A stretch of 64,000 bases of DNA from Steinernema hermaphroditum (taxonomy: Eukaryota > Nematoda > Chromadorea > Rhabditida > Steinernematidae). The position numbers and the translations under genes were made by a program. This document shows positions 1,483 through 53,921 of this stretch, in pieces (positions within the stretch are counted from its first letter, which is position 1; each line of letters begins with the position of its first letter). The notes below the pieces were generated by a model that saw nothing but the letters and a program-made list of their open reading frames with translations, did no database searches and was not told where the DNA came from. The stretch covers positions 12,338,001 to 12,402,000 of the forward strand of contig CM059625.1 of the NCBI GenBank assembly GCA_030435675.1, in the 5' to 3' direction.

Positions 1483-4400
1483 CTGAAAGAAACAAATTCT
1501 GCTAGAGGACGATAAGGTTAGCAGTTAGTTACCTTGTGAACCAGACGAATGCCGAGTGAGCACAGTTCGAGTGACGTTGCCTTCTTGATCGACTGTTTCG
1601 GAGGGTTCGTCCAAGTGAAGTTCTCGAACTCGCGATTCACTTTCTGTTCCAGTGAACTGGACGTGACTCATGACAGGATCGCGCACGCGTGTTACTACGC
1701 TGCGAGAGATCGTCTCCATCGAACCGTCTTTTCCGCGTTGTACGGTTTGGAAAGTTGTAAACGTGGTGGGATATGACGATAGCGCGGCGTCCAAGTCCCC
1801 TCCAAGAGAATCGCGATCCGCATCCTGGTACTCTTGATAGGTTCCCACCGTATCACCGCTCAGAACAGCTGCCGCTGTTTCGGGACTGGCGGCTTGACTG
1901 ATGTCACCGAGAAGCGAATCTTCTTCGGTGGCAATGTTCTCGAGTGAGTCCTTGATGCTGCCTTCAGAAGGGCGCTCGACGACCTCGTACTCGATGAGTG
2001 AAGACTCCTCGATGTCCCGTTGTTGAACATCTTCGATACCTTGAACAGCACTTCCTAGTTCGAGGGAGTCGACGCTCGTTTCAAGCAGTTGTGGTATGAC
2101 TTGCTCGAAGCCCTCTTCGATGCTGTCAGCAGGCGAGGTAGCTCTGGGAGTAGCAGCTGATTTCTCTTCCTGGATGTCAAGAGGAATCGCTTTAAGTTCA
2201 GAAACCGACTCCACGTCTTCTTCATCGTCGTCGCGAACACTCATGTCCTCAACTTCCGACTCTTCTCGAATATCACTCAACATCATGACTTCCTCTTGGG
2301 GCGATGTTTCGCATTCCTGCTCCAGGCGTTCGAACTCCTGAAGCGAGCTGACAGAACCGGCATGCTCCGGACGATCTCGGCCGGTGATCAGTAGTTCAAC
2401 TTCACTGCTGCTCAAGCTCTTATCGCCTTTTAGCAGGAGCTCCTTCTCAATTCGCTCAAATTCTTGCAAACTGGTTTCAGACACATTATCATAGGACATG
2501 TGCTTCCGTTTCGAAAAGAACGACGATTCCGCAGAGACACTATTTAGCGAGCTCGAACCGCTTCCTTCCTTCAGGGAATCCGTATCTTCAGGCTCTTCAT
2601 CGACCGTTTCGAGCTCCTCTCCCTGGTGAGCGCCTTCGCTCCTTGCAACATCATCGCCACCATCGCTAACATCTTCGCCGTAATACATACTAGTTGTCAT
2701 CAACGACTCGTCGCCAATTTCTTCAAGGGGTGATGCAGCAGGTGAAAATGCAAGCTCTTGTTCTTCAACGGCGATTTCAAATTCGTCGTCTTTTTGATGA
2801 TAAGTAGGAACGAATTGTGGTTGCAATGTATCTTCGGACATCGTTCCTTGAATGCCTGCGCTTGCTTCCATAGCATCTTCTTTACGCCTAGGTGGAACGG
2901 GCGAAACAGGCCTGTCCTGATCTTGTGTCAATTTCAGGAGGGAACGGCCTTCCGATGAAGTCAAGATTTCAGTAATTTCGGGGGTGCAACGCTCACTTGG
3001 CTCATCAAAACTGAAGGCTGGTGCAATCCGAACAACCGTTGACGGGGCAGCCGTTGACGAAGCAACCGTCGAAGAACTTTCAGGGCGCTCAGGTTCCGCA
3101 CAACTCTTCAGCAGATCGCCTTTCGCTTCAGAGATCACTTCATGGACAAGTCTCCTTGAAAATTCATGAAGTGACTGTGAACTACCGAAGTCCTGCTCTG
3201 GTGACAACTCGGCACCCTTATCTTCCATGCCGCGATATGTGTGATCCGTATCGTCCAAATCCTTGCAGGTTTCTTCTTCGAAATGCGTTTCCACGGTTAG
3301 AGACTGTGTTTCGTCGTATTGCTGCACAACGTGCAAAGGCAATTCCAATTCAGAAAAGATTGAATCCGCAGTTTGTTCAGCTACAATACGAGCGGTATCA
3401 GGCGCTTCATCAATTTTTTTCTCGAAGACAGACTCGGAGACGATGGGTTCTTCGACTTTGTGGGAGATCTCGTACTCCTCTTCGTAGTGGCGCTCGGTGA
3501 CATGGATCGGAGACTCAGGAGCCTCGGCTTCGGCGTGAGCTTCGGGCTCGAAGGCAGGCTCGGAGACGATGGGTTCCTCGACTTTGTGGGAGATCTCGTA
3601 CTCCTCTTCGTAGTGAGCTTCTGTCACGGTGATTGGAGACTCAGGAGCCTCGGCCTCAACATGAGCTTCGGGCTCGAAGGCAGGCTCGGAGACGATGGGT
3701 TCCTCGATCTTATGGGAGATCTCGTACTCCTCTTCGTAGTGGCGCTCGGTGACATGGATCGGAGACTCAGGAGCCTCGGCTTCGGCGTGAGCTTCGGGCT
3801 CGAAGGCAGGCTCGGAGACCATCGGTTCTTCGACCTTGTGGGAGATCTCGTACTCCTCTTCGTAGTGGCGCTCGGTGACATGGATCGGAGACACAGGAGC
3901 CTCGGCCTCAACATGAGCTTCGGGCTCGAAGGCGGGCTCGGAGACGATGGGTTCCTCGACCTTATGGGAGATCTCGTACTCCTCTTCGTAGTGGCGCTCG
4001 GTGACATGGATCGGAGACTCAGGAGCCTCGGCTTCGGCGTGAGCTTCGGGCTCGAAGGCGGGCTCGGAGACGATGGGTTCCTCGACCTTGTGGGAGATCT
4101 CGCACTCCTCTTCGTAGTGAGGCTCTGTCACGGTGATCGGAGACTCAGGAGCCTCGGCTTCGGCGTGAGCTTCGGGCTCGAAGGCGGGCTCGGAGACGAT
4201 GGGTTCCTCGACCTTGTGGGAGACCTCGTACTCCTCTTCGTAGTGAGGCTCTGTCACGGTGATCGGAGACTCAGGAGCCTCGGCTTCGGCGTGAGCTTCG
4301 GGCTCGAAGGCGAGCTCGGAGACGATGGGTTCCTCGACCTTGTGGGAGACCTCGTACTCCTCTTCGTAGTGAGGCTCTGTCACGGTGATCGGAGACTCAG

Positions 4401-7400
4401 GAGCCTCGGCTTCGGCGTGAGCTTCGGGCTCGAAGGCGGGCTCGGAGACGATGGGTTCCTCGACCTTATGGGAGATCTCGTACACCTTTTCGTAGTGGCG
4501 CTCGGTGGCATGGATCGGAGACTCAGGAGCCTCGGCTTCGGCGTGAGCTTCGGGCTCGAAGGCAGGCTCGGAGACGATGGGTTCCTCGACCTTGTGGGAG
4601 ACCTCGTACTCCTCTTCGTAGTGATGTTCTGTCACGGCGATCGGAGACTCAGGAGCCTCGGCTTCGGCGTGAGCTTCGGGCTCGAAGGCGAGCTCGGAGA
4701 CGATGGGTTCCTCGACCTTGTGGGAGACCTCGTACTCCTCTTCGTAGTGAGGCTCTGTCACGGTGATCGGAGACTCAGGAGCCTCGGCTTCGGCGTGAGC
4801 TTCGGGCTCGAAGGCGGGCTCGGAGACGATGGGTTCCTCGACCTTATGGGAGATCTCGTACACCTTTTCGTAGTGGCGCTCGGTGGCATGGATCGGAGAC
4901 TCAGGAGCCTCGGCTTCGGCGTGAGCTTCGGGCTCGAAGGCGGGCTCGGAGACGATGGGTTCCTCGACCTTGTGGGAGATCTCGTACTCCTCTTCGTAGT
5001 GGCGCTCGGTGGCATGGATCGGAGACTCAGGAGCCTCGGCTTCGGCGTGAGCTTCGGGCTCGAAGGCAGGCTCGGAGACGATGGGTTCCTCGACTTTGTG
5101 GGAGATCTCGTACTCCTCTTCGTAGTGGCGCTCGGTGACATGGATCGGAGACTCAGGAGCCTCGGCTTCGGCGTGAGCTTCGGGCTCGAAGGCGGGCTCG
5201 GAGACGATGGGTTCCTCGACCTTATGGGAGATCTCGTACTCCTCTTCGTAGTGAGGTTCTGTCACGGTGATTGGAGACTCAGGAGCCTCGGCTTCGGCGT
5301 GAGCTTCGGGCTCGAAGGCAGGCTTGGAGACGATGGGTTCCTCGACCTTGTGGGAGATCTCGTACTCCTCTTCGTAGTGGCGCTCGGTGGCATGGATCGG
5401 AGACTCAGGAGCCTCGGCTTCGGCGTGAGCTTCGGGCTCGAAGGCAGGCTCGGAGACGATGGGTTCCTCGACTTTGTGGGAGATCTCGTACTCCTCTTCG
5501 TAGTGGCGCTCGGTGACATGGATCGGAGACTCAGGAGCCTCGGCTTCGGCGTGAGCTTCGGGCTCGAAGGCAGGCTCGGAGACGATGGGTTCCTCGACTT
5601 TGTGGGAGATCTCGTACTCCTCTTCGTAGTGGCGCTCGGTGACATGGATCGGAGACTCAGGAGCCTCGGCTTCGGCGTGAGCTTCGGGCTCGAAGGCGGG
5701 CTCGGAGACCATCGGTTCTTCGACCTTGTGGAAGATCTCGTACTCCTCTTCGTAGTGAGCTTCTGTCACGGTGATTGGAGACTCAGGAGCCTCGGCTTCG
5801 GCGTGAGCTTCGGGCTCGAAGGCGGGCTCGGAGACCATCGGTTCTTCGACCTTGTGGGAGATCTCGTACTCCTCTTCGTAGTGAGGCTCTGTCACGGTGA
5901 TCGGAGACTCAGGAGCCTCGGCTTCGGCGTGAGCTTCGGGCTCGAAGGCGGGCTCGGAGACCATCGGTTCTTCGACCTTGTGGGAGATCTCGTACTCCTC
6001 TTCGTAGTGAGGCTCTGTCACGGTGATCGGAGACTCAGGAGCCTCGGCTTCGGCGTGAGCTTCGGGCTCGAAGGCGGGCTCGGAGACCATCGGTTCTTCG
6101 ACCTTGTGGGAGATCTCGTACTCCTCTTCGTAGTGAGGCTCTGTCACGGTGATCGGAGACTCAGGAGCCTCGGCTTCGGCGTGAGCTTCGGGCTCGAAGG
6201 CGGGCTCGGAGACCATCGGTTCTTCGACCTTGTGGGAGATCTCGTACTCCTCTTCGTAGTGAGGCTCTGTCACGGTGATCGGAGACTCAGGAGCCTCGGC
6301 TTCGGCGTGAGCTTCGGGCTCTAAGGCGGGCTCGGAGACGATGGGTTCCTCGACCTTGTGGGAGATCTCGTACTCCTCTTCGTAGTGAGGTTCTGTCACG
6401 GCGATCGGAGACTCAGGAGCCTCGGCCTCAACATGAGCTTCGGGCTCGAAGGCAGGCTCGGAGACGATGGGTTCCTCGACCTTATGGGAGATCTCGTACT
6501 CCTCTTCGTAGTGGCGCTCGGTGACATGGATCGGAGACTCAGGAGCCTCGGCTTCGGCGTGAGCTTCGGGCTCGAAGGCGGGCTCGGAGACGATGGGTTC
6601 CTCGACCTTGTGGGAGATCTCGTACTCCTCTTCGTAGTGAGGTTCTGTCACGGCGATCGGAGACTCAGAAGCCTCGGCTTCGGCGTGAGCTTCGGGCTCG
6701 AAGGCAGGCTCGGAGACGATGGGTTCCTCGACCTTGTGGGAGACCTCGTACTCCTCTTCGTAGTGAGGTTCTGTCACGGTGATCGGAGACTCAGGAGCCT
6801 CGGCCTCAACATGAGCTTCGGGCTCGAAGGCGGGCTCGGAGACCATCGGTTCTTCGACCTTGTGGGAGATCTCGTACTCCTCTTCGTAGAGGCGCTCGGT
6901 GACATGGATCGGAGACTCAGGAGCCTCGGCTTCGGCGTGAGCTTTGGGCTCGAAGGCGGGCTCGGAGATGATGGGTTCCTCGAACTTGTGGGAGATCTCG
7001 TACTCCTCTTCGTAGAGGCGCTCGGTGACATGGATCGGAGACTCAGGAGCCTCGGCTTCGGCGTGAGCTTCGGGCTCGAAGGCGGGCTCGGAGATGATGG
7101 GTTCCTCGACCTTGTGGGAGATCTCGTACTCCTCTTCGTAGAGGCGTTCGGTGACATGCATCGGAGACTCAGGAGCCTCGGCTTCGGCGTGAGCTTCGGG
7201 CTCGAAGGCGGGCTCGGAGACCATCGGTTCTTCGACCTTGTGGGAGATCTCGTACTCCTCTTCGTAGTGAGGTTCTGTCACGGCGATCGGAGACTCAGGA
7301 GCCTCGGCTTCGGCGTGAGCTTCGGGCTCGGAGATGATGGGTTCCTCGACCTTGTGGGAGACCTCGTACTTCTCTTCGTAGTGAGGTTCTGTCACGGTGG

Positions 7401-10400
7401 TCGGAGACTCAGGAGCCTCGGCCTCAACATGAGCTTCGGGCTCGAAGGCGGGCTCGGAGACCATCGGTTCTTCGACCTTGTGGGAGATCTCGTACTCCTC
7501 TTCGTAGTGGCGCTCGGTGACATGGATCGGAGACTCAGGACCCTCGGCTTCGGCGTGAGCTTCGGGCTCGAAGGCGGGCTCGGAGATGATGGGTTCCTCG
7601 ACCTTGTGGGAGATCTCGTACTCCTCTTCGTAGAGGCGCTCGGTGACATGGATCGGAGACTCAGGAGCCTCGGCTTCGGCGTGAGCTTCGGGCTCGAAGG
7701 CGGGCTCGGAGATGATGGGTTCCTCGACCTTGTGGGAGATCTCGTACTCCTCTTCGTAGAGGCGCTCGGTGACATGGACCGGAGACTCAGGACCCTCGGC
7801 TTCGGCGTGAGCTTCGGGCTCGAAGGCGGGCTCGGAGACCATCGGTTCTTCGACCTTGTGGGAGATCTCGTACTCCTCTTCGTAGAGGCGCTCGGTGACA
7901 TGGATCGGAGACTCAGGAGCCTCGGCTTCGGCGTGAGCTTCGGGCTCGAAGGCAGGCTCGGAGATGATGGGTTCCTCGACCTTGTGGGAGATCTCGTACT
8001 CCTCTTCGTAGTGAGGTTCTGTCACGGCGATCGGAGACTCAGGAGCCTCGGCTTCGGCGTGAGCTTCGGGCTCGAAGGCGGGCTCGGAGATGATGGGTTC
8101 CTCGACCTTGTGGGAGATCTCGTACTCCTCTTCGTAGTGGCGCTCGGTGACATGGATCGGAGACACAGGAGCCTCGGCTTCGGCGTGAGCTACGGGCTCG
8201 AAGGCAGGCTCGGAGACCATCGGTTCTTCGACCTTGTGGGAGATCTCGTACTCCTCTTCGTAGTGGCGCTCGGTGACATGGATCGGAGACACAGGAGCCT
8301 CGGCTTCGGCGTGAGCTTCGGGCTCGAAGGCGGGCTCGGAGACCATCGGTTCTTCGACCTTGTGGGAGATCTCGTACTCCTCTTCGTAGTGGCGCTCGGT
8401 GACATGGATCGGAGACACAGGAGCCTCGGCTTCGGCGTGAGCATCGGGCTCGAAGGCAGGCTCGGAGATGATGGGTTCCTCGACCTTGTGGGAGATCTCG
8501 TACTCCTCTTCGTAGAGGCGTTCGGTGACATGGATCGGAGACACAGGAGCCTCGGCTTCGGCGTGAGCTTCGGGCTCGAAGGCAGGCTCGGAGATGATGG
8601 GTTCCTCGACCTTGTGGGAGATATCGTACTCCTCTTCGTAGTGGCGCTCGGTGACATGGATCGGAGACACAGGAGCCTCGGCTTCGGCGTGAGCTTCGGG
8701 CTCGAAGGCAGGCTCGGAGATGATGGGTTCCTCGACCTTGTGGGAGATCTCGTACTCCTCTTCGTAGTGAGGTTCTGTCACGGCGATCGGAGACTCAGGA
8801 GCCTCGGCTTCGGCGTGAGCTTCGGGCTCGAAGGCGGGCTCGGAGATGATGGGTTCCTCGACCTTGTGGGAGATCTCGTACTCCTCTTCGTAGTGGCGCT
8901 CGGTGACATGGATCGGAGACACAGGAGCCTCGGCTTCGGCGTGAGCTTCGGGCTCGAAGGCAGGCTCGGAGACCATCGGTTCTTCGACCTTGTGGGAGAT
9001 CTCGTACTCCTCTTCGTAGTGGCGCTCGGTGACATGGATCGGAGACACAGGAGCCTCGGCTTCGGCGTGAGCTTCGGGCTCGAAGGCAAGCTCGGAGATG
9101 ATGGGTTCCTCGACCTTGTGGGAGATCTCGTACTCCTCTTCGTAGAGGCGTTCGGTGACATGGATCGGAGACACAGGAGCCTCGGCTTCGGCGTGAGCTT
9201 CGGGCTCGAAGGCAGGCTCGGAGATGATGGGTTCCTCGACCTTGTGGGAGATCTCGTACTCCTCTTCGTAGTGAGGTTCTGTCACGGTGATCGGAGACTC
9301 AGGAGCCTCGGCCTCAACATGAGCTTCGGGCTCGAAGGCAGGCTCGGAGACCATCGGTTCTTCGACCTTGTGGGAGATCTCGTACTCCTCTTCGTAGTGG
9401 CGCTCGGTGACATGGATCGGAGACACAGGAGCCTCGGCTTCGGCGTGAGCTTCGGGCTCGAAGGCAGGCTCGGAGACCATCGGTTCTTCGACCTTGTGGG
9501 AGATCTCGTACTCCTCTTCGTAGTGGCGCTCGGTGACATGGATCGGAGACACAGGAGCCTCGGCTTCGGCGTGAGCTTCGGGCTCGAAGGCAGGCTCGGA
9601 GATGATGGGTTCCTCGACCTTGTGGGAGATCTCGTACTCCTCTTCGTAGAGGCGTTCGGTGACATGGATCGGAGACACAGGAGCCTCGGCTTCGGCGTGA
9701 GCTTCGGGCTCGAAGGCAGGCTCGGAGATGATGGGTTCCTCGACCTTGTGGGAGATCTCGTACTCCTCTTCGTAGTGAGGTTCTGTCACGGTGATCGGAG
9801 ACTCAGGAGCCTCGGCCTCAACATGAGCTTCGGGCTCGAAGGCAGGCTCGGAGACCATCGGTTCTTCGACCTTGTGGGAGATCTCATACTCCTCTTCGTA
9901 GTGGCGCTCGGTGACATGGATCGGAGACTCAGGAGCCTCGGCCTCAACATGAGCTTCGGGCTCGAAGGCAGGCTCGGAGATGATGGGTTCCTCGACCTTG
10001 TGGGAGATCTCGTACTCCTCTTCGTAGTGAGGTTCTGTCACGGTGATCGGAGACTCAGGAGCCTCGGCCTCAACATGAGCTTCGGGCTCGAAGGCAGGCT
10101 CGGAGATGATGGGTTCCTCGACCTTGTGGGAGATCTCGTACTCCTCTTCGTAGTGAGGTTCTGTCACGGTGATCGGAGACTCAGGAGCCTCGGCCTCAAC
10201 ATGAGCTTCGGGCTCGAAGGCAGGCTCGGAGATGATGGGTTCCTCGACCTTGTGGGAGATCTCGTACTCCTCTTCGTAGAGGCGTTCGGTGACATGGATC
10301 GGAGACACAGGAGCCTCGGCTTCGGCGTGAGCTTCGGGCTCGAAGGCAGGCTCGGAGATGATGGGTTCCTCGACCTTGTGGGAGATCTCGTACTCCTCTT

Positions 10401-13400
10401 CGTAGTGAGGTTCTGTCACGGTGATCGGAGACTCAGGAGCCTCGGCCTCAACATGAGCTTCGGGCTCGAAGGCAGGCTCGGAGACCATCGGTTCTTCGAC
10501 CTTGTGGGAGATCTCATACTCCTCTTCGTAGTGGCGCTCGGTGACATGGATCGGAGACTCAGGAGCCTCGGCTTCGGCGTGAGCTTCGGGCTCGAAGGCA
10601 GGCTCGGAGATGATGGGTTCCTCGACCTTGTGGGAGATCTCGTACTCCTCTTCGTAGTGAGGTTCTGTCACGGTGATCGGAGACTCAGGAGCCTCGGCCT
10701 CAACATGAGCTTCGGGCTCGAAGGCAGGCTCGGAGATGATGGGTTCCTCGACCTTGTGGGAGATCTCGTACTCCTCTTCGTAGTGAGGCTCTGTCACGGT
10801 GATCGGAGACTCAGGAGCCTCGGCTTCGGCGTGAGCTTCGGGCTCGAAGGCAGGCTCGGAGATGATGGGTTCCTCGACCTTGTGGGAGATCTCGTACTCC
10901 TCTTCGTAGTGAGGTTCTGTCACGGTGATCGGAGACTCAGGAGCCTCGGCTTCGGCGTGAGCTTCGGGCTCGAAGGCAGGCTCGGAGATGATGGGTTCCT
11001 CGACCTTGTGGCAGATCTCGTACTCCTCTTCGTAGTGAGGCTCTGTCACGGTGATCGGAGACTCAGGAGCCTCGGCTTCGGCGTGAGCTTCGGGCTCGAA
11101 GGCAGGCTCGGAGATGATGGGTTCCTCGACCTTGTGGGAGATCTCGTACTCCTCTTCGTAGTGAGGCTCTGTCACGGTGATCGGAGACTCAGGAGCCTCG
11201 GCTTCGGCGTGAGCTTCGGGCTCGAAGGCAGGCTCGGAGATGATGGGTTCCTCGACCTTGTGGGAGATCTCGTACTCCTCTTCGTAGTGGCGCTCGGTGA
11301 CATGGATCGGAGACTCAGGAGCCTCGGCTTCGGCGTGAGCTTCGGGCTCGAAGGCGGGCTCGGAGACCATCGGTTCTTCGACCTTGTGGGAGATCTCGTA
11401 CTCCTCTTCGTAGTGGCGCTCGGTGACATGGATCGGAGACTCAGGAGCCTCGGCTTCGGCGTGAGCTTCGGGCTCGAAGGCGGGCTCGGAGACCATCGGT
11501 TCTTCGACCTTGTGGGAGATCTCGTACTCCTCTTCGTAGTGGCGCTCGGTGACATGGATCGGAGACTCAGGAGCGTCGGCTTCGGCGTGAGCTTCGGGCT
11601 CGAAGGAGGGCTCGGAGACGATGGGTTCCTCGACCTTGTGGGAGATCTCGTACTCCTCTTCGTAGTGGCGCTCGGTGACATGGATCGGAGACTCAGGAGC
11701 CTCGGCTTCGGCGTGAGCTTCGGGCTCGAAGACGGGCTCGGAGACGAGGGGTTCCTCGACCTTGTGGGAGATCTCGTACTCCTCCTCGTAGAGGCGTTCG
11801 GTGACATGCATCGGAGACTCAGGAGCCTCGGCTTCGGCGTGAGCTTCGGGCTCGAAGACGGGCTCGGAGACGAGGGGTTCCTCGACCTTGTGGGAGATCT
11901 CGTACTCCTCTTCGTAGAGGCGCTCGGTGACATGCATCGGAGACTCAGGAGCCTCGACTTCGGCGTCAGCTTCGGGCTCGAAGGCGGGCTCGGAGACGAT
12001 GGGTTCCTCGACCTTGTGGGAGATCTCGTACTCCTCTTCGTAGAGGCGTTCGGTGACATGCATCGGAGACTCAGGAGCCTCGGCTTCGGCGTGAGCTTCG
12101 GGCTCGAAGGCGGGCTCGGAGACGATGGGTTCCTCGACCTTGTGGGAGATCTCGTACTCCTCTTCGTAGAGGCGCTCGGTGACATGCATCGGAGACTCAG
12201 GAGCCTCGGCTTCGGCGTGAGCTTCGGGCTCGAAGGCGGGCTCGGAGACGATGGGTTCCTCGACCTTGTGGGAGATCTCGTACTCCTCTTCGTAGTGGCG
12301 CTCGGTGACATGGATCGGAGACTCAGGAGCCTCGGCTTCGGCGTGAGCTTCGGGCTCGAAGGCAGGCTCGGAGATGATGGGTTCCTCGACCTTGTGGGAG
12401 ATCTCGTACTCCTCTTCGTAGTGAGGCTCTGTCACGGTGATCGGAGACTCAGGAGCCTCGGCTTCGGCGTGAGCTTCGGGCTCGAAGGCAGGCTCGGAGA
12501 TGATGGGTTCCTCGACCTTGTGGGAGATCTCGTACTCCTCTTCGTAGTGAGGTTCTGTCACGGTGATCGGAGACTCAGGAGCCTCGGCTTCGGCGTGAGC
12601 TTCGGGCTCGAAGGCAGGCTCGGAGATGATGGGTTCCTCGACCTTGTGGCAGATCTCGTACTCCTCTTCGTAGTGAGGCTCTGTCACGGTGATCGGAGAC
12701 TCAGGAGCCTCGGCTTCGGCGTGAGCTTCGGGCTCGAAGGCAGGCTCGGAGATGATGGGTTCCTCGACCTTGTGAGAGATCTCGTACTCCTCTTCGTAGT
12801 GAGGCTCTGTCACGGTGATCGGAGACTCAGGAGCCTCGGCTTCGGCGTGAGCTTCGGGCTCGAAGGCAGGCTCGGAGATGATGGGTTCCTCGACCTTGTG
12901 GGAGATCTCGTACTCCTCTTCGTAGTGGCGCTCGGTGACATGGATCGGAGACTCAGGAGCCTCGGCTTCGGCGTGAGCTTCGGGCTCGAAGGCGGGCCCC
13001 GGGCTCGGAGACCATCGGTTCTTCGACCTTGTGGGAGATCTCGTACTCCTCTTCGTAGTGGCGCTCGGTGACATGGATCGGAGACTCAGGAGCCTCGGCT
13101 TCGGCGTGAGCTTCGGGCTCGAAGGCGGGCTCGGAGACCATCGGTTCTTCGACCTTGTGGGAGATCTCGTACTCCTCTTCGTAGTGAGGTTCTGTCACGG
13201 CGATCGGAGACTCAGGAGCGTCGGCTTCGGCGTGAGCTTCGGGCTCGAAGGAGGGCTCGGAGACGATGGGTTCCTCGACCTTGTGGGAGATCTCGTACTC
13301 CTCTTCGTAGTGGCGCTCGGTGACATGGATCGGAGACTCAGGAGCCTCGGCTTCGGCGTGAGCTTCGGGCTCGAAGGCGGGCTCGGAGACGATGGGTTCC

Positions 13401-16400
13401 TCGACCTTGTGGGAGATCTCGTACTCCTCTTCGTAGTGGCGCTCGGTGACATGGATCGGAGACTCAGGAGCCTCGGCTTCGGCGTGAGCTTCGGGCTCGA
13501 AGGCAGGCTCGGAGATGATGGGTTCCTCGACCTTGTGGGAGATCTCGTACTCCTCTTCGTAGTGGCGCTCGGTGACATGGATCGGAGACTCAGGAGCCTC
13601 GGCTTCGGCGTGAGCTTCGGGCTCGAAGGCAGGCTCGGAGATGATGGGTTCCTCGACCTTGTGGGAGATCTCGTACTCCTCTTCGTAGTGGCGCTCGGTG
13701 ACATGGATCGGAGACTCAGGAGCCTCGGCTTCGGCGTGAGCTTCGGGCTCGAAGGCAGGCTCGGAGACGATGGGTTCCTCGACTTTGTGGGAGATCTCGT
13801 ACTCCTCTTCGTAGTGGCGCTCGGTGACATGGATCGGAGACTCAGGAGCCTCGGCTTCGGCGTGAGCTTCGGGCTCGAAGGCAGGCTCGGAGACGATGGG
13901 TTCCTCGACTTTGTGGGAGATCTCGTACTCCTCTTCGTAGTGGCGCTCGGTGACATGGATCGGAGACTCAGGAGCCTCGGCTTCGGCGTGAGCTTCGGGC
14001 TCGAAGGCGGGCTCGGAGACCATCGGTTCTTCGACCTTGTGGAAGATCTCGTACTCCTCTTCGTAGTGACGCTTCTGTCACGGTGATTGGAGACTCAGGA
14101 GCCTCGGCTTCGGCGTGAGCTTCGGGCTCGAAGGCGGGCTCGGAGACCATCGGTTCTTCGACCTTGTGGGAGATCTCGTACTCCTCTTCGTAGTGAGGCT
14201 CTGTCACGGTGATCGGAGACTCAGGAGCCTCGGCTTCGGCGTGAGCTTCGGGCTCGAAGGCGGGCTCGGAGACCATCGGTTCTTCGACCTTGTGGGAGAT
14301 CTCGTACTCCTCTTCGTAGTGAGGCTCGGTCACGGGGATCGGAGACACAGGAGCCTCGGCTTCGGCGTGAGCTTCGGGCTCGAAGGCGGGCTCGGAGACC
14401 ATCGGTTCTTCGACCTTGTGGGAGATCTCGTACTCCTCTTCGTAGTGAGGCTCTGTCACGGGGATCGGAGACACAGGAGCCTCGGCTTCGGCGTGAGCTT
14501 CGGGCTCGAAGGCGGGCTCGGAGACCATCGGTTCTTCGACCTTGTGGGAGATCTCGTACTCCTCTTCGTAGTGAGGCTCTGTCACGGTGATCGGAGACTC
14601 AGGAGCCTCGGCTTCGGCGTGAGCTTCGGGCTCTAAGGCGGGCTCGGAGACGATGGGTTCCTCGACCTTGTGGGAGATCTCGTACTCCTCTTCGTAGTGA
14701 GGTTCTGTCACGGCGATCGGAGACTCAGGAGCCTCGGCCTCAACATGAGCTTCGGGCTCGAAGGCAGGCTCGGAGACCATGGGTTCCTCGACCTTGTGGG
14801 AGATCTCGTACTCCTCTTCGTAGTGGCGCTCGGTGACATGGATCGGAGACTCAGGAGCCTCGGCTTCGGCGTGAGCTTCGGGCTCGAAGGCGGGCTCGGA
14901 GACGATGGGTTCCTCGACCTTGTGGGAGATCTCGTACTCCTCTTCGTAGTGAGGTTCTGTCACGGCGATCGGAGACTCAGAGAGCCTCGGCTTCGGCGTG
15001 AGCTTCGGGCTCGAAGGCAGGCTCGGAGACGATGGGTTCCTCGACCTTGTGGGAGACCTCGTACTCCTCTTCGTAGTGAGGTTCTGTCACGGTGATCGGA
15101 GACTCAGGAGCCTCGGCCTCAACATGAGCTTCGGGCTCGAAGGCGGGCTCGGAGACCATCGGTTCTTCGACCTTGTGGGAGATCTCGTACTCCTCTTCGT
15201 AGAGGCGCTCGGTGACATGGATCGGAGACTCAGGAGCCTCGGCTTCGGCGTGAGCTTTGGGCTCGAAGGCGGGCTCGGAGATGATGGGTTCCTCGAACTT
15301 GTGGGAGATCTCGTACTCCTCTTCGTAGAGGCGCTCGGTGACATGGATCGGAGACTCAGGAGCCTCGGCTTCGGCGTGAGCTTCGGGCTCGAAGGCGGGC
15401 TCGGAGATGATGGGTTCCTCGACCTTGTGGGAGATCTCGTACTCCTCTTCGTAGAGGCGTTCGGTGACATGGATCGGAGACACAGGAGCCTCGGCTTCGG
15501 CGTGAGCTTCGGGCTCGAAGGCAGGCTCGGAGATGATGGGTTCCTCGACCTTGTGGGAGATCTCGTACTCCTCTTCGTAGTGAGGTTCTGTCACGGTGAT
15601 CGGAGACTCAGGAGCCTCGGCCTCAACATGAGCTTCGGGCTCGAAGGCAGGCTCGGAGACCATCGGTTCTTCGACCTTGTGGGAGATCTCGTACTCCTCT
15701 TCGTAGTGGCGCTCGGTGACATGGATCGGAGACACAGGAGCCTCGGCTTCGGCGTGAGCTTCGGGCTCGAAGGCAGGCTCGGAGACCATCGGTTCTTCGA
15801 CCTTGTGGGAGATCTCGTACTCCTCTTCGTAGAGGCGCTCGGTGACATGGATCGGAGACTCAGGAGCCTCGGCTTCGGCGTGAGCTTCGGGCTCGAAGGC
15901 GGGCTCGGAGATGATGGGTTCCTCGACCTTGTGGGAGATCTCGTACTCCTCTTCGTAGTGGCGCTCGGTGACATGGATCGGAGACACAGGAGCCTCGGCT
16001 TCGGCGTGAGCTACGGGCTCGAAGGCAGGCTCGGAGACCATCGGTTCTTCGACCTTGTGGGAGATCTCGTACTCCTCTTCGTAGAGGCGCTCGGTGACAT
16101 GGATCGGAGACTCAGGAGCCTCGGCTTCGGCGTGAGCTTCGGGCTCGAAGGCGGGCTCGGAGACGATGGGTTCCTCGACCTTGTGGGAGATCTCGTACTC
16201 CTCTTCGTAGTGGCGCTCGGTGACATGGATCGGAGACACAGGAGCCTCGGCTTCGGCGTGAGCTTCGGGCTCGAAGGCAGGCTCGGAGACCATCGGTTCT
16301 TCGACCTTGTGGGAGATCTCGTACTCCTCTTCGTAGTGGCGCTCGGTGACATGGATCGGAGACACAGGAGCCTCGGCTTCGGCGTGAGCTTCGGGCTCGA

Positions 16401-19400
16401 AGGCAGGCTCGGAGATGATGGGTTCCTCGACCTTGTGGGAGATCTCGTACTCCTCTTCGTAGTGAGGTTCTGTCACGGCGATCGGAGACTCAGGAGCCTC
16501 GGCTTCGGCGTGAGCTTCGGGCTCGAAGGCGGGCTCGGAGATGATGGGTTCCTCGACCTTGTGGGAGATCTCGTACTCCTCTTCGTAGTGGCGCTCGGTG
16601 ACATGGATCGGAGACACAGGAGCCTCGGCTTCGGCGTGAGCTTCGGGCTCGAAGGCAGGCTCGGAGACCATCGGTTCTTCGACCTTGTGGGAGATCTCGT
16701 ACTCCTCTTCGTAGAGGCGCTCGGTGACATGGATCGGAGACTCAGGAGCCTCGGCTTCGGCGTGAGCTTCGGGCTCGAAGGCGGGCTCGGAGACGATGGG
16801 TTCCTCGACCTTGTGGGAGATCTCGTACTCCTCTTCGTAGAGGCGTTCGGTGACATGGATCGGAGACACAGGAGCCTCGGCTTCGGCGTGAGCTTCGGGC
16901 TCGAAGGCAGGCTCGGAGATGATGGGTTCCTCGACCTTGTGGGAGATCTCGTACTCCTCTTCGTAGTGAGGTTCTGTCACGGCGATCGGAGACTCAGGAG
17001 CCTCGGCTTCGGCGTGAGCTTCGGGCTCGAAGGCGGGCTCGGAGATGATGGGTTCCTCGACCTTGTGGGAGATCTCGTACTCCTCTTCGTAGTGGCGCTC
17101 GGTGACATGGATCGGAGACACAGGAGCCTCGGCTTCGGCGTGAGCTTCGGGCTCGAAGGCAGGCTCGGAGACCATCGGTTCTTCGACCTTGTGGGAGATC
17201 TCGTACTCCTCTTCGTAGTGGCGCTCGGTGACATGGATCGGAGACACAGGAGCCTCGGCTTCGGCGTGAGCTTCGGGCTCGAAGGCAAGCTCGGAGATGA
17301 TGGGTTCCTCGACCTTGTGGGAGATCTCGTACTCCTCTTCGTAGAGGCGTTCGGTGACATGGATCGGAGACACAGGAGCCTCGGCTTCGGCGTGAGCTTC
17401 GGGCTCGAAGGCAGGCTCGGAGATGATGGGTTCCTCGACCTTGTGGGAGATCTCGTACTCCTCTTCGTAGTGAGGTTCTGTCACGGTGATCGGAGACTCA
17501 GGAGCCTCGGCCTCAACATGAGCTTCGGGCTCGAAGGCAGGCTCGGAGACCATCGGTTCTTCGACCTTGTGGGAGATCTCGTACTCCTCTTCGTAGTGGC
17601 GCTCGGTGACATGGATCGGAGACACAGGAGCCTCGGCTTCGGCGTGAGCTTCGGGCTCGAAGGCAGGCTCGGAGACCATCGGTTCTTCGACCTTGTGGGA
17701 GATCTCGTACTCCTCTTCGTAGTGGCGCTCGGTGACATGGATCGGAGACACAGGAGCCTCGGCTTCGGCGTGAGCTTCGGGCTCGAAGGCAGGCTCGGAG
17801 ATGATGGGTTCCTCGACCTTGTGGGAGATCTCGTACTCCTCTTCGTAGTGAGGTTCTGTCACGGTGATCGGAGACTCAGGAGACTCGGCCTCAACATGAG
17901 TTTCGGGCTCGAAGGCAGGCTCGGAGACCATCGGTTCTTCGACCTTGTGGGAGATCTCATACTCCTCTTCGTAGTGGCGCTCGGTGACATGGATCGGAGA
18001 CTCAGGAGCCTCGGCTTCGGCGTGAGCTTCGGGCTCGAAGGCAGGCTCGGAGATGATGGGTTCCTCGACCTTGTGGGAGATCTCGTACTCCTCTTCGTAG
18101 TGAGGTTCTGTCACGGTGATCGGAGACTCAGGAGCCTCGGCCTCAACATGAGCTTCGGGCTCGAAGGCAGGCTCGGAGATGATGGGTTCCTCGACCTTGT
18201 GGGAGATCTCGTACTCCTCTTCGTAGTGAGGCTCTGTCACGGTGATCGGAGACTCAGGAGCCTCGGCTTCGGCGTGAGCTTCGGGCTCGAAGGCAGGCTC
18301 GGAGATGATGGGTTCCTCGACCTTGTGGGAGATCTCGTACTCCTCTTCGTAGTGAGGCTCTGTCACGGTGATCGGAGACTCAGGAGCCTCGGCTTCGGCG
18401 TGAGCTTCGGGCTCGAAGGCAGGCTCGGAGATGATGGGTTCCTCGACCTTGTGGGAGATCTTTCTTCTCTTTTTTATTGAGGCCCTTTTCGGGGGGGGGG
18501 GGGCCCAGGGGCCCCGGCTTCGGCGTGAGCTTCGGGCTCGAAGGCAGGCTCGGAGATGATGGGTTCCTCGACCTTGTGGGAGATCTCGTACTCCTCTTCG
18601 TAGTGGCGCTCGGTGACATGGATCGGAGACTCAGGAGCCTCGGCTTCGGCGTGAGCTTCGGGCTCGAAGGCGGGCTCGGAGACCATCGGTTCTTCGACCT
18701 TGTGGGAGATCTCGTACTCCTCTTCGTAGTGGCGCTCGGTGACATGGATCGGAGACTCAGGAGCCTCGGCTTCGGCGTGAGCTTCGGGCTCGAAGGAGGG
18801 CTCGGAGACGATGGGTTCCTCGACCTTGTGGGAGATCTCGTACTCCTCTTCGTAGAGGCGCTCGGTGACATGCATCGGAGACTCAGGAGCCTCGGCTTCG
18901 GCGTGAGCTTCGGGCTCGAAGACGGGCTCGGAGACGAGGGGTTCCTCGACCTTGTGGGAGATCTCGTACTCCTCTTCGTAGAGGCGCTCGGTGACATGCA
19001 TCGGAGACTCAGGAGCCTCGACTTCGGCGTCAGCTTCGGGCTCGAAGGCGGGCTCGGAGACGATGGGTTTTCTTCCCCTTTTTGGGGGACCTCTTCCCCC
19101 TCTTCGTAGAGGCGTTCGGTGACATGCATCGGAGACTCAGGAGCCTCGGCTTCGGCGTGAGCTTCGGGCTCGAAGGCGGGCTCGGAGACGATGGGTTCCT
19201 CGACCTTGTGGGAGATCTCGTACTCCTCTTCGTAGTGGCGCTCGGTGACATGGATCGGAGACTCAGGAGCCTCGGCTTCGGCGTGAGCTTCGGGCTCGAA
19301 GGCGGGCTCGGAGATGATGGGTTCCTCGACCTTGTGGGAGATCTCGTACTCCTCTTCGTAGTGAGGCTCTGTCACGGTGATTCTTCGCTCCTTCACCCCC

Positions 19401-22400
19401 TCCTCTTCCGCCTCGTCTTTCGCTCTAAAAGGGGCCCCGGAAAGAAGGGTTTCCCCCCCTTTTGGGGGATTTCTTACTCCTCTTCGTAGAGGCGTTCGGT
19501 GACATGCATCGGAGACTCAGGAGCCTCGGCTTCGGCGTGAGCTTCGGGCTCGAAGGCGGGCTCGGAGACGATGGGTTCCTCGACCTTGTGGGAGATCTCG
19601 TACTCCTCTTCGTAGTAGAGCGGCTTCGGTGACATGGATCGGAGACTCAGGAGCCTCGGCTTCGGCGTGAGCTTCGGGCTCGAAGGCAGGCTCGGAGATG
19701 ATGGGTTCCTCGACCTTGTGGGAGATCTCGTACTCCTCTTCGTAGGGCTCGGTGACATGGGAGACTCTCGGCTTCACGGTGATCGTTTTCCTCAAAAGAG
19801 AGATTCTTTCTTCTTTTGTTTTTTTTTTCCCTTCTCATGAGACTCAGGAGCCTCGACTTCGGCGTGAGCTTCGGGCTCGAAGGCGGGCTCGGAGACGATG
19901 GGTTCCTCGACCTTGTGGGAGATCTCGTACTCCTCTTCGTAGAGGCGTTCGGTGACATGCATCGGAGACTCAGGAGCCTCGGCTTCGGCGTGAGCTTCGG
20001 GCTCGAAGGCGGGCTCGGAGACGATGGGTTCCTCGACCTTGTGGGAGATCTCGTACTCCTCTTCGTAGAGGCGCTCGGTGACATGGATCGGAGACACAGG
20101 AGCCTCGGCTTCGGCGTGAGCTTCGGGCTCGAAGGCAGGCTCGGAGATGATGGGTTCCTCGACCTTGTGGGAGATCTCGTACTCCTTTTCGTAGTGAGGC
20201 TCTGTCACGGTGATCGGAGACTCAGGAGCCTCGGCTTCGGCGTGAGCTTCGGGCTCGAAGGCAGGCTCGGAGATGATGGGTTCCTCGACCTTGTGGGAGA
20301 TCTCGTACTCCTCTTCGTAGTGAGGCTCTGTCACGGTGATCGGAGACTCAGGAGCCTCGGCTTCGGCGTGAGCTTCGAGCTCGAAGGCGGGCTCGGAGAC
20401 GATGGGTTCCTCGACCTTGTGGGAGATCTCGTACTCCTCTTCGTAGAGGCGTTCGGTGACATGCATCGGAGACTCAGGAGCCTCGGCTTCGGCGTGAGCT
20501 TCGGGCTCGAAGGCGGGCTCGGAGACGATGGGTTCCTCGACCTTGTGGGAGATCTCGTACTCCTCTTCGTAGTGAGGTTCTGTCACGGCGATCGGAGACT
20601 CAGGAGCCTCGGCTTCGGCGTGAGCTTCGGGCTCGAAGGCGGGCTCGGAGACGATGGGTTCCTCGACCTTGTGGGAGATCTCGTACTCCTCTTCGTAGTG
20701 AGGTTCTGTCACGGCGATCGGAGACTCAGGAGCCTCGGCTTCGGCGTGAGCTTCGGGCTCGAAGGCGGGCTCGGAGACGATGGGTTCCTCGACCTTGTGG
20801 GAGATCTCGTACTCCTCTTCGTAGAGGCGCTCGGTGACATGGATCGGAGACACAGGAGCCTCGGCTTCGGCGTGAGCTTCGGGCTCGAAGGCAGGCTCGG
20901 AGATGATGGGTTCCTCGACCTTGTGGGAGATCTCGTACTCCTTTTCGTAGTGAGGCTCTGTCACGGTGATCGGGGACTCAGGAGCCTCGGCTTCGGCGTG
21001 AGCTTCGGGCTCGAAGGCAGGCTCGGAGACCATCGGTTCCTCGACCTTGTGGGAGATCTCGTACTTCTCTTCGTAGTGGCGCTCGGTGACATGGATCGGA
21101 GACTCAGGAGCCTCGGCTTCGGCGTGAGCTTCGGGCTCGAAGGCAGGCTCGGAGATGATGGGTTCCTCGACCTTGTGGGAGATCTCGTACTCCTTTTCGT
21201 AGTGAGGCTCTGTCACGGTGATCGGAGACTCAGGAGCCTCGGCTTCGGCGTGAGCTTCGGGCTCGAAGGCAGGCTCGGAGATGATGGGTTCCTCGACCTT
21301 GTGGGAGATCTCGTACTCCTCTTCGTAGTGAGGTTCTGTCACGGTGATCGGAGACTCAGGAGCCTCGGCCTCAACATGAGCTTCGGGCTCGAAGGCAGGC
21401 TCGGAGACCGTCGGTTCTTCGACCTTGTGGGAGATCTCGTACTCCTCTTCGTAGAGGCGTTCGGTGACATGGATCGGAGACGCAGGAGCCTCGGCTTCGG
21501 CGTGAGCTTCGGGCCCGAAGGCAGGCTCGGAGACCATCGGTTCTTCGACCTTGTGGGAGATCTCGTACTCCTCTTCGTAGTGGCGCTCGGTGACATGGAT
21601 CGGAGACTCAGGAGCCTCGGCTTCGGCGTGAGCTTCGGGCTCGAAGGCAGGCTCGGAGATGATGGGTTCCTCGACCTTGTGGGAGATCTCGTACTCCTCT
21701 TCGTAGAGGCGTTCGGTGACATGGATCGGAGACTCAGGAGCCTCGGCTTCGGCGTGAGCTTCGGGCTCGAAGGCAGGCTCGGAGATGATGGGTTCCTCGA
21801 CCTTGTGGGAGATCTCGTACTCCTCTTCGTAGAGGCGTTCGGTGACATGGATCGGAGACTCAGGAGCCTCGGCTTCGGCGTGAGCTTCGGGCTCGAAGGC
21901 AGGCTCGGAGATGATGGGTTCCTCGACCTTGTGGGAGATCTCGTACTCCTTTTCGTAGTGAGGCTCTGTCACGGTGATCGGAGACTCAGGAGCCTCGGCT
22001 TCGGCGTGAGCTTCGGGCTCGAAGGCGGGCTCGGAGACGATGGGTTCCTCGACCTTGTGGGAGATCTCGTACTCCTCTTCGTAGAGGCGTTCGGTGACAT
22101 GGATCGGAGACTCAGGAGCCTCGGCTTCGGCGTGAGCTTCGGGCTCGAAGGCAGGCTCGGAGACGATGGGTTCCTCGACCTTGTGGGAGATCTCGTACTC
22201 CTCTTCGTAGAGGCGTTCGGTGACATGGATCGGAGACTCAGGAGCCTCGGCTTCGGCGTGAGCTTCGGGCTCGAAGGCAGGCTCGGAGATGATGGGTTCC
22301 TCGACCTTGTGGGAGATCTCGTACTCCTTTTCGTAGTGAGGCTCTGTCACGGTGATCGGAGACTCAGGAGCCTCGGCTTCGGCGTGAGCTTCGGGCTCGA

Positions 22401-25400
22401 AGGCGGGCTCGGAGACGATGGGTTCCTCGACCTTGTGGGAGATCTCGTACTCCTCTTCGTAGAGGCGTTCGGTGACATGGATCGGAGACTCAGGAGCCTC
22501 GGCTTCGGCGTGAGCTTCGGGCTCGAAGGCAGGCTCGGAGATGATGGGTTCCTCGACCTTGTGGGAGATCTCGTACTCCTTTTCGTAGTGAGGCTCTGTC
22601 ACGGTGATCGGAGACTCAGGAGCCTCGGCTTCGGCGTGAGCTTCGGGCTCGAAGGCGGGCTCGGAGACGATGGGTTCCTCGACCTTGTGGGAGATCTCGT
22701 ACTCCTCTTCGTAGAGGCGTTCGGTGACATGGATCGGAGACTCAGGAGCCTCGGCTTCGGCGTGAGCTTCGGGCTCGAAGGCAGGCTCTGTTTTTTCTTT
22801 TTTGGAGATGATGGGTTCCTCGTACCTTTTGGGAGATCTCTTACTCCTTTTCGTAGTGAGGCTCTGTCACGGTGATCGGAGACTCAGGAGCCTCGGCTTC
22901 GGCGTGAGCTTCGGGCTCGAAGGCGGGCTCGGAGACGATGGGTTCCTCGACCTTGTGGGAGACCTCGTACTCCTCTTCGTAGTGAGGTTCTGTCACGGCG
23001 ATCGGAGACTCAGGAGCCTCGGCTTCGGCGTGAGCTTCGGGCTCGAAGGCGGGCTCGGAGACGATGGGTTCCTCGACCTTGTGGGAGATCTCGTACTCCT
23101 CTTCGTAGTGGCGCTTGGTGACATGGATCGGAGACTCAGGAGCCTCGGCTTCGGCGTGAGCTTCGGGCTCGAAGGCGGGCTCGGAGATGATGGGTTCCTC
23201 GACCTTGTGGGAGATCTCGTACTCCTCTTCGTAGTGGCGCTCGGTGACATGGATCGGAGACTCAGGAGCCTCGGCTTCGGCGTGAGCTTCGGGCTCGAAG
23301 GCAGGCTCGGAGATGATGGGTTCCTCGACCTTGTGGGAGATCTCGTACTCCTCTTCGTAGTGGCGCTCGGTGACATGGATCGGAGACTCAGGAGCCTCGG
23401 CTTCGGCGTGAGCTTCGGGCTCGAAGGCGGGCTCGGAGATGATGGGTTCCTCGACCTTGTGGGAGATCTCGTACTCCTCTTCGTAGTGGCGCTCGGTGAC
23501 ATGGATCGGAGACTCAGGAGCCTCGGCTTCGGCGTGAGCTTCGGGCTCGAAGGCAGGCTCGGAGATGATGGGTTCCTCGACCTTGTGGGAGATCTCGTAC
23601 TCCTCTTCGTAGTGGCGCTCGGTGACATGGATCGGAGACTCAGGAGCCTCGACTTCGGCGTGAGCTTCGGGCTCGAAGGTGGGCTCGGAGACGATGGGTT
23701 CCTCGACCTTGTGGGAGATCTCGTACTCCTCTTCGTAGTGGCGCTCGGTGACATGGATCGGAGACTCAGGAGCCTCGGCCTCAACATGAGCTTCGGGCTC
23801 GAAGGCAGGCTCGGAGACCATCGGTTCTTCGACCTTGTGGGAGATCTCGTACTCCTCTTCGTAGTGGCGCTCGGTGACATGGATCGGTGACTCAGGAGCC
23901 TCGGCTTCGGCGTGAGCTTCGGGCTCGAAGGCAGGCTCGGAGATGATGGGTTCTTCGACCTTGTGGGAGATCTCGTACTCCTCTTCGTAGTGGCGCTCGG
24001 TGACATGGATCGGAGACTCAGGAGCCTCGGCTTCGGCGTGAGCTTCGGGCTCGAAGGCAGGCTCGGAGATGATGGGTTCTTCGACCTTGTGGGAGATCTC
24101 GTACTCCTCTTCGACGTGAGGCTCATTCGCAGCGGTCGAGCTAGGATACTCAAAGGCTGCGACATCTCGTGCATGTCTGCTGTGTTGCTTTGGTTGGTAG
24201 GTCTGTGTTGTTGGCTTTATTTCCTCATGTTCGGCTTCAATGTGTTTTCGCCTTTCTTTTGATTGTTCTCCATTTTCGTGGTCTTTTGACACTTGTGCAT
24301 TATACTCTGTTATGCGTGCTTTGACGAAACCTTTTTCTGGTTCAGGACTTTCGACGGTTTCATGCTCTTCCGTCTCCTGTAAATGCGTTTCTTCTTGCTC
24401 AGTAACACACGGCACTGGAGTCACTGGGGTGACGATGATTTCTACGTTTGATGTTTGCTCCTTCGGTGAGATTTGTTCTTTTGGAGGTGAGCTGCTGGTG
24501 CTGGCGATCGACTCGAATATAGCAATTCTGTCTCGGACAGAACCGAATGATGTTGTCGACTCGGGAGAAGATGAACGGCGCTTTTCGTCCTCCTCTGAAA
24601 ATAAACGTTTTAAGGCGTGGTGCAGATTACTTTTTTAGTATGCATAGTGATGGAGGCAGTGAGCAGCAGGAAAGCGGAATGTAGTGCAATTTGTGGTTTG
24701 TTGTGATTGTTTCCGCCATATCACCCTATATTTCCTTTTGTTCTTTTATTGTTTTTTGTTTGGCCAGCTCTTAGGCATTCTTCGTGGAAGTTGCCTTTGA
24801 TGTTGCTAAAGGTGCTAGTGAAGTAAAATTCGAACCTTTACTTTAGGCTTAGTTGCTCACGAACGCGATCAATTCACAACTATTTCAACGAATCACTATT
24901 ATTTTACTCTAAACAATGAATGACCGGGAATATGAAAGCGCTGATCTTCTTCACAATGTCGCAGGGGTTCACAGCTGCTGCGATTCCGCTATGGCTGGTG
25001 TGTGAGTTTGAACAATGGGTACCAAATGAATCTGGTGATCATGAGGGTCGATACTTCCGTCGTAAACTTGGTCATTCACCTTCAGTCGAATCAGCTCGTC
25101 GCCTGAACACTGCGTCATTGCCTCAGAAGCCATCATTTTCCGTTGTTAGTCGAACTGCAGTCATTTTTACGGCGGCAAAACCCTTATAGCTTATAGGTTC
25201 TATTCATTAAGGCTATCTATAGTGTTCCATCGTCAGAACGGCAATGTTCACAAACATTTCGCTTGTCAATAAACAGGCAAATCAAAAACAACTTCAATTT
25301 TTAAGGTGGCACTGTGTAATGGTGTTTTTCTTAAAGGCAGGCAGCAAGGGGTGACGAAGCACAAGGAACACATGCTAATAGTGTGAACAAGCATCACAAA

Positions 25401-34002: not shown

Positions 34003-34014
34003 GCCCGAGTTTTG

Positions 34015-52978: not shown

Positions 52979-53921
52979 TTACTTCCTTTTTGGATTCAGA
53001 CAGAAGGAGTGCTGACACATCTGTAAAGCCTCCCATTCCGCTTTAAAAGCCTGCTTAGGATCTTGGGGCGCGGCCATAGGTCCAGCAGTCATCTGGTCCT
53101 CCATCATCTTCGAAGTGTCCGCTGCATTTTCTTCGCCAAGCACGAGTGTGTAAATCGATCGTAGTCCAAATACATTCAAGAAATACCACGAAGCCGAAGA
53201 CACCCAAGCTGCATCAAGAGACACGAGCTCTATGCCACGCTGTAACATTGGCTTGAACCTGCAAACAGAGAATTATGCTACGTCTTCTTTTTCGCTCTAA
53301 CCTCAAAGTAAGCGGAAACGGAACGCGTGTCGTAAGGAATCCAGAGAAGGTCCAGTTGATCCAGCCTCCGATCACAATCATCGGAATCATGTTCAGCATG
53401 TTTCCCTTCAACATTTCAACCATAGTTGAAGGGTCCATAGGGTTCATGGCTGTGTTTCCTTGTCGCCCCCGTCCTTGTGCAATATATCCGTGTTCTTCGT
53501 CGCTAAGGAAATGTTTCCGCATCACGAACGACTGACGAGGAATAAGACGACCGTTTTCACGTAGCAGTCTTGATTTCATTAAGTAGTGACTGAAAAATGA
53601 CAGTAGGATTACCTGCACACAGAACTCGGAGTAAAATGAAGCTGGGAAGCTAGGTGGGTAAAACAAAAGAGAGAAAAATAACCATCTGTTATACTCAGAA
53701 ATTTTGCGTATTCGTAATCTACGTTTCCCTCTCACACTGTCCAGCAGTAGAAAACAAATGAAGCAAACTTACTTGTCCTGGATCTGTTGTAAATCCATCC
53801 TCTTCTTCGACATAAGGAGGAGGGAGACGTAATGCCGAAGAATCCCAACCATAAACGTGATAAGCACAATAGGAACAAAAACCCATGTTCGAATCGCTGG
53901 ATCTAGTACTAGGTCTGTCAT
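52979..53921 (-). CDS. EMC3: ER membrane protein complex subunit 3
   Basis: Core insertase subunit of the EMC (Oxa1/GET1/TMCO1 superfamily), which inserts tail-anchored and multipass proteins into the ER membrane. Three exons: 53921-53773, 53589-53302 and 53258-52979, 238 residues, all in phase. The ATG directly follows a TTTCAG 3' splice site. Recognisable blocks: [20 protein letters not shown] with the first membrane segment, MKGN-like [20 protein letters not shown] with the second, and [20 protein letters not shown] with the third. The C-terminus ([19 protein letters not shown]) is about 20 residues shorter than the human protein and lacks its acidic helix. Confidence 0.95.

What the first reader, a model, noticed from the sequence alone, without database searches (positions are those of the whole stretch)
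3420..24115. Megadalton ankyrin tail made of ~164 acidic 42-residue repeats
A single exon carries about 20.7 kb of 126-bp coding repeats, predicting a >1 MDa ankyrin. Giant ankyrin exons are known in worm, fly and vertebrates, but a tail made almost wholly of a near-identical 42-mer is unusual. It could act as a length-tunable, phosphorylatable polymer spacer between membrane and cytoskeleton.
Basis: partly seen in the sequence, partly recalled or inferred. Interest (0 to 1): 0.85.

Follow-up and report, generated by a model that had tools for sequence, protein, structure and literature searches.

The report
Giant worm ankyrin with repeated tail
This is a nematode's version of a known giant nerve-cell scaffold protein, with an unusually long tail made of copies of one acidic 42-residue unit; the assembled DNA looks damaged in the middle of that tail, so its true length is uncertain.

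Summary
The array is real: 164 units of 126 bp (42 residues) run on the minus strand from 24118 to 3490, on average 93.1% identical in DNA and 91.1% in protein (148 units). It lies between an ankyrin core (Ank repeats, ZU5, UPA, Death) and a C-terminus found in other nematodes' tails (12 homologues): an unc-44-type giant ankyrin.

Two corrections. First, it is not one open exon in this assembly: the frame changes 9 times between units 11 and 90. The damaged stretches hold all 11 homopolymer runs of 5 or more in the array, so consensus error is the likeliest cause. Only units 1-10 and 90-164 are frame-clean and joined to unique sequence. Units 48-86 repeat units 112-153 at 98.6%. So the true array may be shorter, and ">1 MDa" is not secured.

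Second, private repeat arrays in giant ankyrin exons, with 5 to more than 160 copies, are published (PMC5135030), as is a 1200-kDa fly isoform (PMC6703079). It is a new member of a known kind, most likely a disordered acidic tether between a membrane/spectrin core and a microtubule-linking C-terminus.

The parts
3490..24118 (-). Array of 164 units of 126 bp (42 residues)
24119..24594 (-). Unique start of the tail exon, after the proposed acceptor (158 whole codons from 24592)
1525..3489 (-). Degenerate last unit and unique C-terminus up to the stop codon; homologous in 12 other proteins
12928..22858 (-). Part of the array holding every frame-changing lesion (units 11-89)
13313..18228 (-). Units 48-86, first copy of the internal duplication
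4876..10155 (-). Units 112-153, second copy of the internal duplication
25437..25460 (-).
   Evidence: sequence read by eye
27395..27691 (-). Possible exon ending at a GTGAGT donor (the other proposed partner of 24594); its start is taken from an acceptor-like site at 27692
   Evidence: boundaries not proven
28235..28495 (-). Death domain (33 bits, over the cut-off; one stop inside, presumably an intron)
28773..29066 (-). ORF with most of the UPA domain (UPA_2, 102.8 bits)
29087..29782 (-). ORF with a weak second ZU5 (19.3 bits, under the cut-off of 21) and the start of UPA
29886..30176 (-). ZU5 domain (115.8 bits)
31383..34014 (-). Exons with ankyrin repeats
   Evidence: Pfam Ank in five pieces

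Best explanation
This is the unc-44-type ankyrin gene of an unnamed nematode. Its giant isoform has a tail built mostly of one private, Glu/Pro/Ala-rich 42-residue unit. Most likely the array is a disordered, strongly negative tether: the core holds membrane proteins and spectrin, and the conserved C-terminus, which in C. elegans binds UNC-119 and through it the microtubule-binding CRMP UNC-33L, reaches microtubules at a distance. Shown here: the array, core domains, conserved C-terminus, and in-frame constraint between units. Inferred: splicing into one protein, disorder, the tether role, and that the frame breaks are consensus or assembly errors. The copy number is uncertain: 85 units (1-10 and 90-164) are frame-clean and joined to unique sequence, 164 are assembled.
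For: Ank, ZU5, UPA and Death domains lie upstream on the same strand. The last 510 residues match 12 of 1638 scored candidates at 38-58% identity, 11 of them named by their sources as nematode proteins. In-frame pN/pS is 0.26, against 1.17-2.18 in four of the five other frames; the fifth, antisense, gives 0.37 but with 27630 stop-containing codon comparisons. All 11 homopolymer runs of 5 or more in the array lie in stretches that I marked as damaged, 1489 of 20629 bases. The 12 damaged units span only units 11-89; P 1.35e-3 for so short a span at random. S, T, E, D, K and P make up 55.7% of the units, close to the >55% reported for long exons (PMC5135030 passage). In C. elegans the UNC-44 C-terminus binds UNC-119, and UNC-33L through it (PMC7159925 section 5).
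Against: As assembled, the frame is not continuous. The homopolymer test is partly circular: a clean unit contains no such run, so runs can only fall where the sequence departs from the unit; and 3 of the 7 damaged stretches (units 73, 80, 89) have no such run, only small insertions. Damaged neighbours are not independent, so the P value is rough. Constraint between the two copies of the internal duplication is weaker: 23 synonymous and 38 non-synonymous codon differences in 35 clean pairs of 38. No reads, transcripts or protein data were available. That this C-terminus is the UNC-119-binding part rests on its position; the limits of the published fragment were not read, and no UNC-119 test was possible.
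Confidence: 0.75

Rival explanations
1. The frame breaks are real: the giant tail ends after about 10 units, and the rest of the array and the C-terminus are unused or made from another transcript.
For: The assembled frame does stop just below 22844, and three damaged stretches are simple small insertions without junk.
Against: The C-terminus beyond the breaks keeps up to 58% identity with other nematodes; the last 3889 codons are open; units show pN/pS 0.26 and no stops in 148.
Confidence: 0.1
2. The giant tail is real, but the array is over-long in the assembly: two versions of one stretch were joined, and the true array is nearer 100 units.
For: Units 48-86 match units 112-153 at 98.6%, score 92 against a maximum of 24 in 40 shuffles of unit order; the first copy lies within the damaged part of the array.
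Against: The copies differ by unit gains and losses and by 61 codon changes in 35 clean pairs, as expected of an old true duplication.
Confidence: 0.4
3. The array is not a passive tether but a many-site binding surface for microtubules or their partners.
For: The Ank2-XL repeat region is said to be essential for interaction with microtubules (PMC6703079 passage). Several unit positions never vary in 148 units, such as H10, K11, E13, E14, P15 and S18.
Against: The unit is strongly acidic, about -11, which does not favour direct binding to acidic microtubules (general knowledge). Relatives use other units.
Confidence: 0.25
4. The array is a tolerated expansion with no length-dependent role, kept in frame only because breaks would cost the C-terminus.
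For: Private unit; only a fraction of the fly array is needed for axon diameter (PMC5135030 passage).
Against: pN/pS 0.26 shows constraint on residues, not only on frame, although shared ancestry and conversion between units can also keep them alike.
Confidence: 0.25

Closest known systems
C. elegans UNC-44 giant isoform AO13
   Same: Ankyrin core, long tail after the Death domain (PMC5135030 passage), and a conserved C-terminus (a C. tropicalis protein is 54% identical)
   Different: AO13 is described as six Ser/Thr/Glu/Pro-rich blocks separated by seven hydrophobic domains (PMC7159925); here one 42-residue unit, about 10% Ser+Thr, fills most of the tail
Drosophila Ank2-XL
   Same: Giant ankyrin with a long array (93 repeats of 76 residues, PMC5135030 passage), given as 1200 kDa (PMC6703079 passage)
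   Different: Unit of 42, not 76, residues; the sequences of the two units were not compared here
Repeats in giant tails of other nematodes: Brugia P0005, Anisakis P0001, Dracunculus P0002, Cercopithifilaria P0007
   Same: Glu-rich repeats upstream of the same conserved C-terminus
   Different: Units of 57, 117, 112 and 57 residues, at most about 24 copies; the 42-residue profile passes the inclusion threshold in none of the 12 homologues (best E 0.051)
Vertebrate giant ankyrin-G
   Same: Giant neuronal isoform from an unusually long exon
   Different: No repeat array, and the exon lies upstream of the Death domain (PMC5135030 passages)

Membership tests
Canonical animal ankyrin | Block of ankyrin repeats at the N-terminus (24 in canonical members) | tested here: met
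   Pfam Ank in five pieces between 34014 and 31383; the number 24 was not counted
Canonical animal ankyrin | ZU5-ZU5-UPA cassette | tested here: met
   ZU5 115.5 bits; second ZU5 19.3 bits, just under the cut-off of 21; UPA_2 102.8 bits
Canonical animal ankyrin | Death domain after UPA | tested here: met
   33 bits, over the cut-off of 22.6, at 28495-28235
Nematode UNC-44 giant isoform | Conserved C-terminus of the giant tail | tested here: met
   12 homologues of 1638 scored candidates, best E 1.4e-98
Nematode UNC-44 giant isoform | Long exon downstream of the Death domain | tested here: met
   Death domain at 28495-28235, tail from about 24594, minus strand
Nematode UNC-44 giant isoform | One continuous open frame through the long exon | tested here: inconclusive
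   Nine frame changes as assembled; the frame-changing lesions are confined to units 11-89 and several carry low-complexity junk, so assembly error is likely but unproven
Nematode UNC-44 giant isoform | STEP blocks separated by hydrophobic domains, as in C. elegans AO13 | not tested
   Described in PMC7159925; no hydrophobicity scan was run
Nematode UNC-44 giant isoform | Tail exon spliced to the core | not testable with these tools
   No transcripts; splice-like sites only
Nematode UNC-44 giant isoform | Orthology shown by a family tree | not tested
   No tree was built
UNC-119-binding ankyrin tail | C-terminus binds UNC-119 and through it UNC-33L | not testable with these tools
   Shown for C. 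elegans in PMC7159925

The most novel reading that the evidence does not exclude
The array truly holds about 164 or more units, making one of the largest ankyrins: a single uniform acidic polymer of about 6900 residues whose unit number evolves as an adjustable spacer between cell cortex and microtubules.
Probability: 0.15. Interest if true: 0.5.

Novelty: new member of a known kind. Interest (0 to 1): 0.3.

Why it matters
It adds a clear case in which the core and C-terminus of a giant ankyrin are conserved while the stretch between them is a private repeat; filarial worms, Anisakis and (in print) flies have other units in that place. That pattern suggests that length and charge, more than exact sequence, matter for these tails, which can be tested by shortening or swapping arrays. 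It also warns that gene models and protein sizes taken from this part of the assembly are unreliable.

Tried and rejected
A decaying array: thought unlikely, because the frame-changing lesions are confined to units 11-89 and the damaged stretches hold all 11 homopolymer runs. Four further units (133, 134, 146, 163) have frame-neutral indels and were not counted as damaged.

A repeat family spread through the genome: the two-unit probe gave 154 matches; every row listed lies in this array, some rows are not listed, and the tool calls its counts lower bounds.

The same unit in other species: searches (1774 candidates, about 4200-13500 aa by the tool's length rule; 7993 candidates, about 560-1800 aa) found none; the unit profile passed the threshold in none of the 12 homologues. 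One search covered only with the C-terminus. Proteins of other lengths, and relatives with no deposited gene model, would be missed, so absence is not proven.

Species: not identified. A guess at Steinernema, recalled from genome size, was neither tested nor confirmed (searches were literature listings; one search found 0 papers).

Poly(A) signals AATAAA, ATTAAA and AATGAA: none between 1527 and 1001 on the minus strand. Long plus-strand ORFs: not taken as genes; antisense pN/pS is 2.18, 0.37 and 1.78, with stop-containing comparisons in all three frames. No structure prediction was run, since a disordered repeat was expected to give a poor model. The listing, on low-coverage GA-rich stretches, is not relied on.

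Full report
What is there. The window is G000:C5:12338001-12402000 of a 90.6-Mb genome in 60 contigs. Tandem Repeats Finder reports period 126 at 3421-19760 and 19839-24113. A cyclic alignment to the unit consensus divides 24118-3490, minus strand, into 164 units, 149 of them without an indel. Mean pairwise identity is 93.1% in DNA and 91.1% in protein over 148 units (unit 45, indel-free but corrupted, left out). The consensus unit [42 protein letters not shown] has 13 Glu and a computed charge near -11; 164 such units would be 6888 residues and 791 kDa, and the C-terminus adds 70 kDa. Whether the whole passes 1 MDa depends on the core, whose spliced length was not modelled, and on the true copy number.

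Is it coding? Between units pN is 0.043 and pS 0.165, ratio 0.26, with no stop in 148 units. Four of the other five frames give 1.17-2.18; one antisense frame gives 0.37, with 27630 stop-containing codon comparisons. The last 3889 codons (13194-1528), holding units 90-164 and the C-terminus, are one ORF.

What is wrong with it. The frame of unit starts changes 9 times, always between units 11 and 90. Fifteen of 164 units have indels: eleven lie in units 11-89; the other four (133, 134, 146, 163) are frame-neutral. Several damaged units hold smeared low-complexity sequence between consensus stretches. All 11 homopolymer runs of 5 or more in the array lie in the seven stretches marked as damaged, 1489 of 20629 bases; they fall in four of the seven, while units 73, 80 and 89 carry only small insertions. 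The test is partly circular, since clean units contain no such run. Twelve damaged units (the eleven plus unit 45) span 78 positions, P 1.35e-3 at random, neighbours not being independent. Units 1-10 and 90-164, next to unique sequence, are frame-clean, as expected if interior reads could not be placed or polished. This is inference: no reads were available.

Internal duplication. Units 48-86 align with units 112-153 in 38 pairs with a mean of 1.79 differences in 126 bases; the score is 92 against at most 24 in 40 shuffles of unit order. In 35 clean pairs of 38, 23 codon differences are synonymous and 38 are not, weaker constraint than for the array as a whole. It may be a true old duplication or two versions of one stretch joined; if false, the array shrinks by about 65 units.

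Which gene. Upstream on the same strand lie ankyrin repeats, a strong ZU5, a weak second ZU5, UPA and Death domains. ZU5 searches of the genome found this locus and one place on C2; the Death search likewise found this locus and one other place on C2. The last 510 residues match 12 proteins among 1638 scored candidates, from Anisakis, Dracunculus, two Onchocerca, C. tropicalis, Brugia, Cercopithifilaria, Setaria, two Mesorhabditis, Ditylenchus and one unnamed source, at 38-58% identity. The name unc-44 rests on domain order plus this tail; no tree was built. A TTTTCAG acceptor ends at 24595 and GTGAGT donors follow 25437 and 27395.

Compared with relatives. Homologous tails carry other repeats: Brugia 57 residues, about 24 copies; Anisakis 117 residues, about 5 and 3; Dracunculus 112 residues, about 2.6 and 3; Cercopithifilaria 57 residues, about 2.4 and 3.3. 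Two more (C. tropicalis, Ditylenchus) had no stretch of 50% identity at the lag tested; 6 of 12 were examined this way, all 12 by autocorrelation. The 42-residue profile passed the threshold in none of the 12, and two other protein searches found none.

Compared with print. PMC5135030 (passages): long exons in 23 of 36 bilaterian ankyrins examined; mean 8103 bp; repeat arrays in a subset, 5 to more than 160 copies of 36-228 bp, with recognisable homology only between very close species; a spacer idea for the fly array of 93 x 76 residues, of which only a fraction is required for axon diameter. PMC6703079 (passages): Ank2-XL is 1200 kDa and its repeat region is said to be essential for interaction with microtubules. 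PMC7159925 (section 5 and passages): the C. elegans UNC-44 C-terminus binds UNC-119 and through it UNC-33L; AO13 has six STEP blocks. Listings showed no paper on this array; that does not prove absence from print.

How it probably works. The core sits at membrane and spectrin, the C-terminus hands over to UNC-119 and CRMP on microtubules, and the array is a long, disordered, negative tether. Composition fits the published bias (S, T, E, D, K, P 55.7%). Exact sequence seems not to be decisive, since relatives use other units, although residues within this array are constrained. Phosphorylation is only possible: three Ser and one Thr a unit, one Ser followed by Pro.

Verdict. A real and striking array in a known class; the single-exon, over-1-MDa claim rests on a damaged and partly duplicated stretch and needs reads.

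Noticed in passing
window 12928-22858, minus strand: Low-complexity junk and small indels inside an otherwise regular array; gene models and protein sizes taken from here are unreliable.
   Followed up: yes
window 25813-26820, minus strand: A 336-aa ORF ending in a stop between core and tail exon, possibly an alternative last exon of a shorter isoform; no Pfam match.
   Followed up: partly
window 54431-55152, minus strand: ORFs that look by eye like a Rab-type small GTPase (not searched).
   Followed up: no
window 53214-54194, minus strand: ORFs that look by eye like the ER membrane complex subunit EMC3 (recalled likeness, not searched).
   Followed up: no
window 56259-56966, plus strand: ORF that looks by eye like a pyridoxal-phosphate homeostasis protein of the YggS/PLPBP kind (recalled likeness, not searched).
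   Followed up: no
G000:C2:7316398-7316631 (L008) and G000:C2:13607957-13608091 (L001): The only other ZU5 and Death-domain matches that searches listed in this genome; not examined.
   Followed up: no
window 3364-13071, plus strand: Long antisense ORFs (986 and 2248 aa) that mirror the array; taken as a by-product of the repeated unit.
   Followed up: partly
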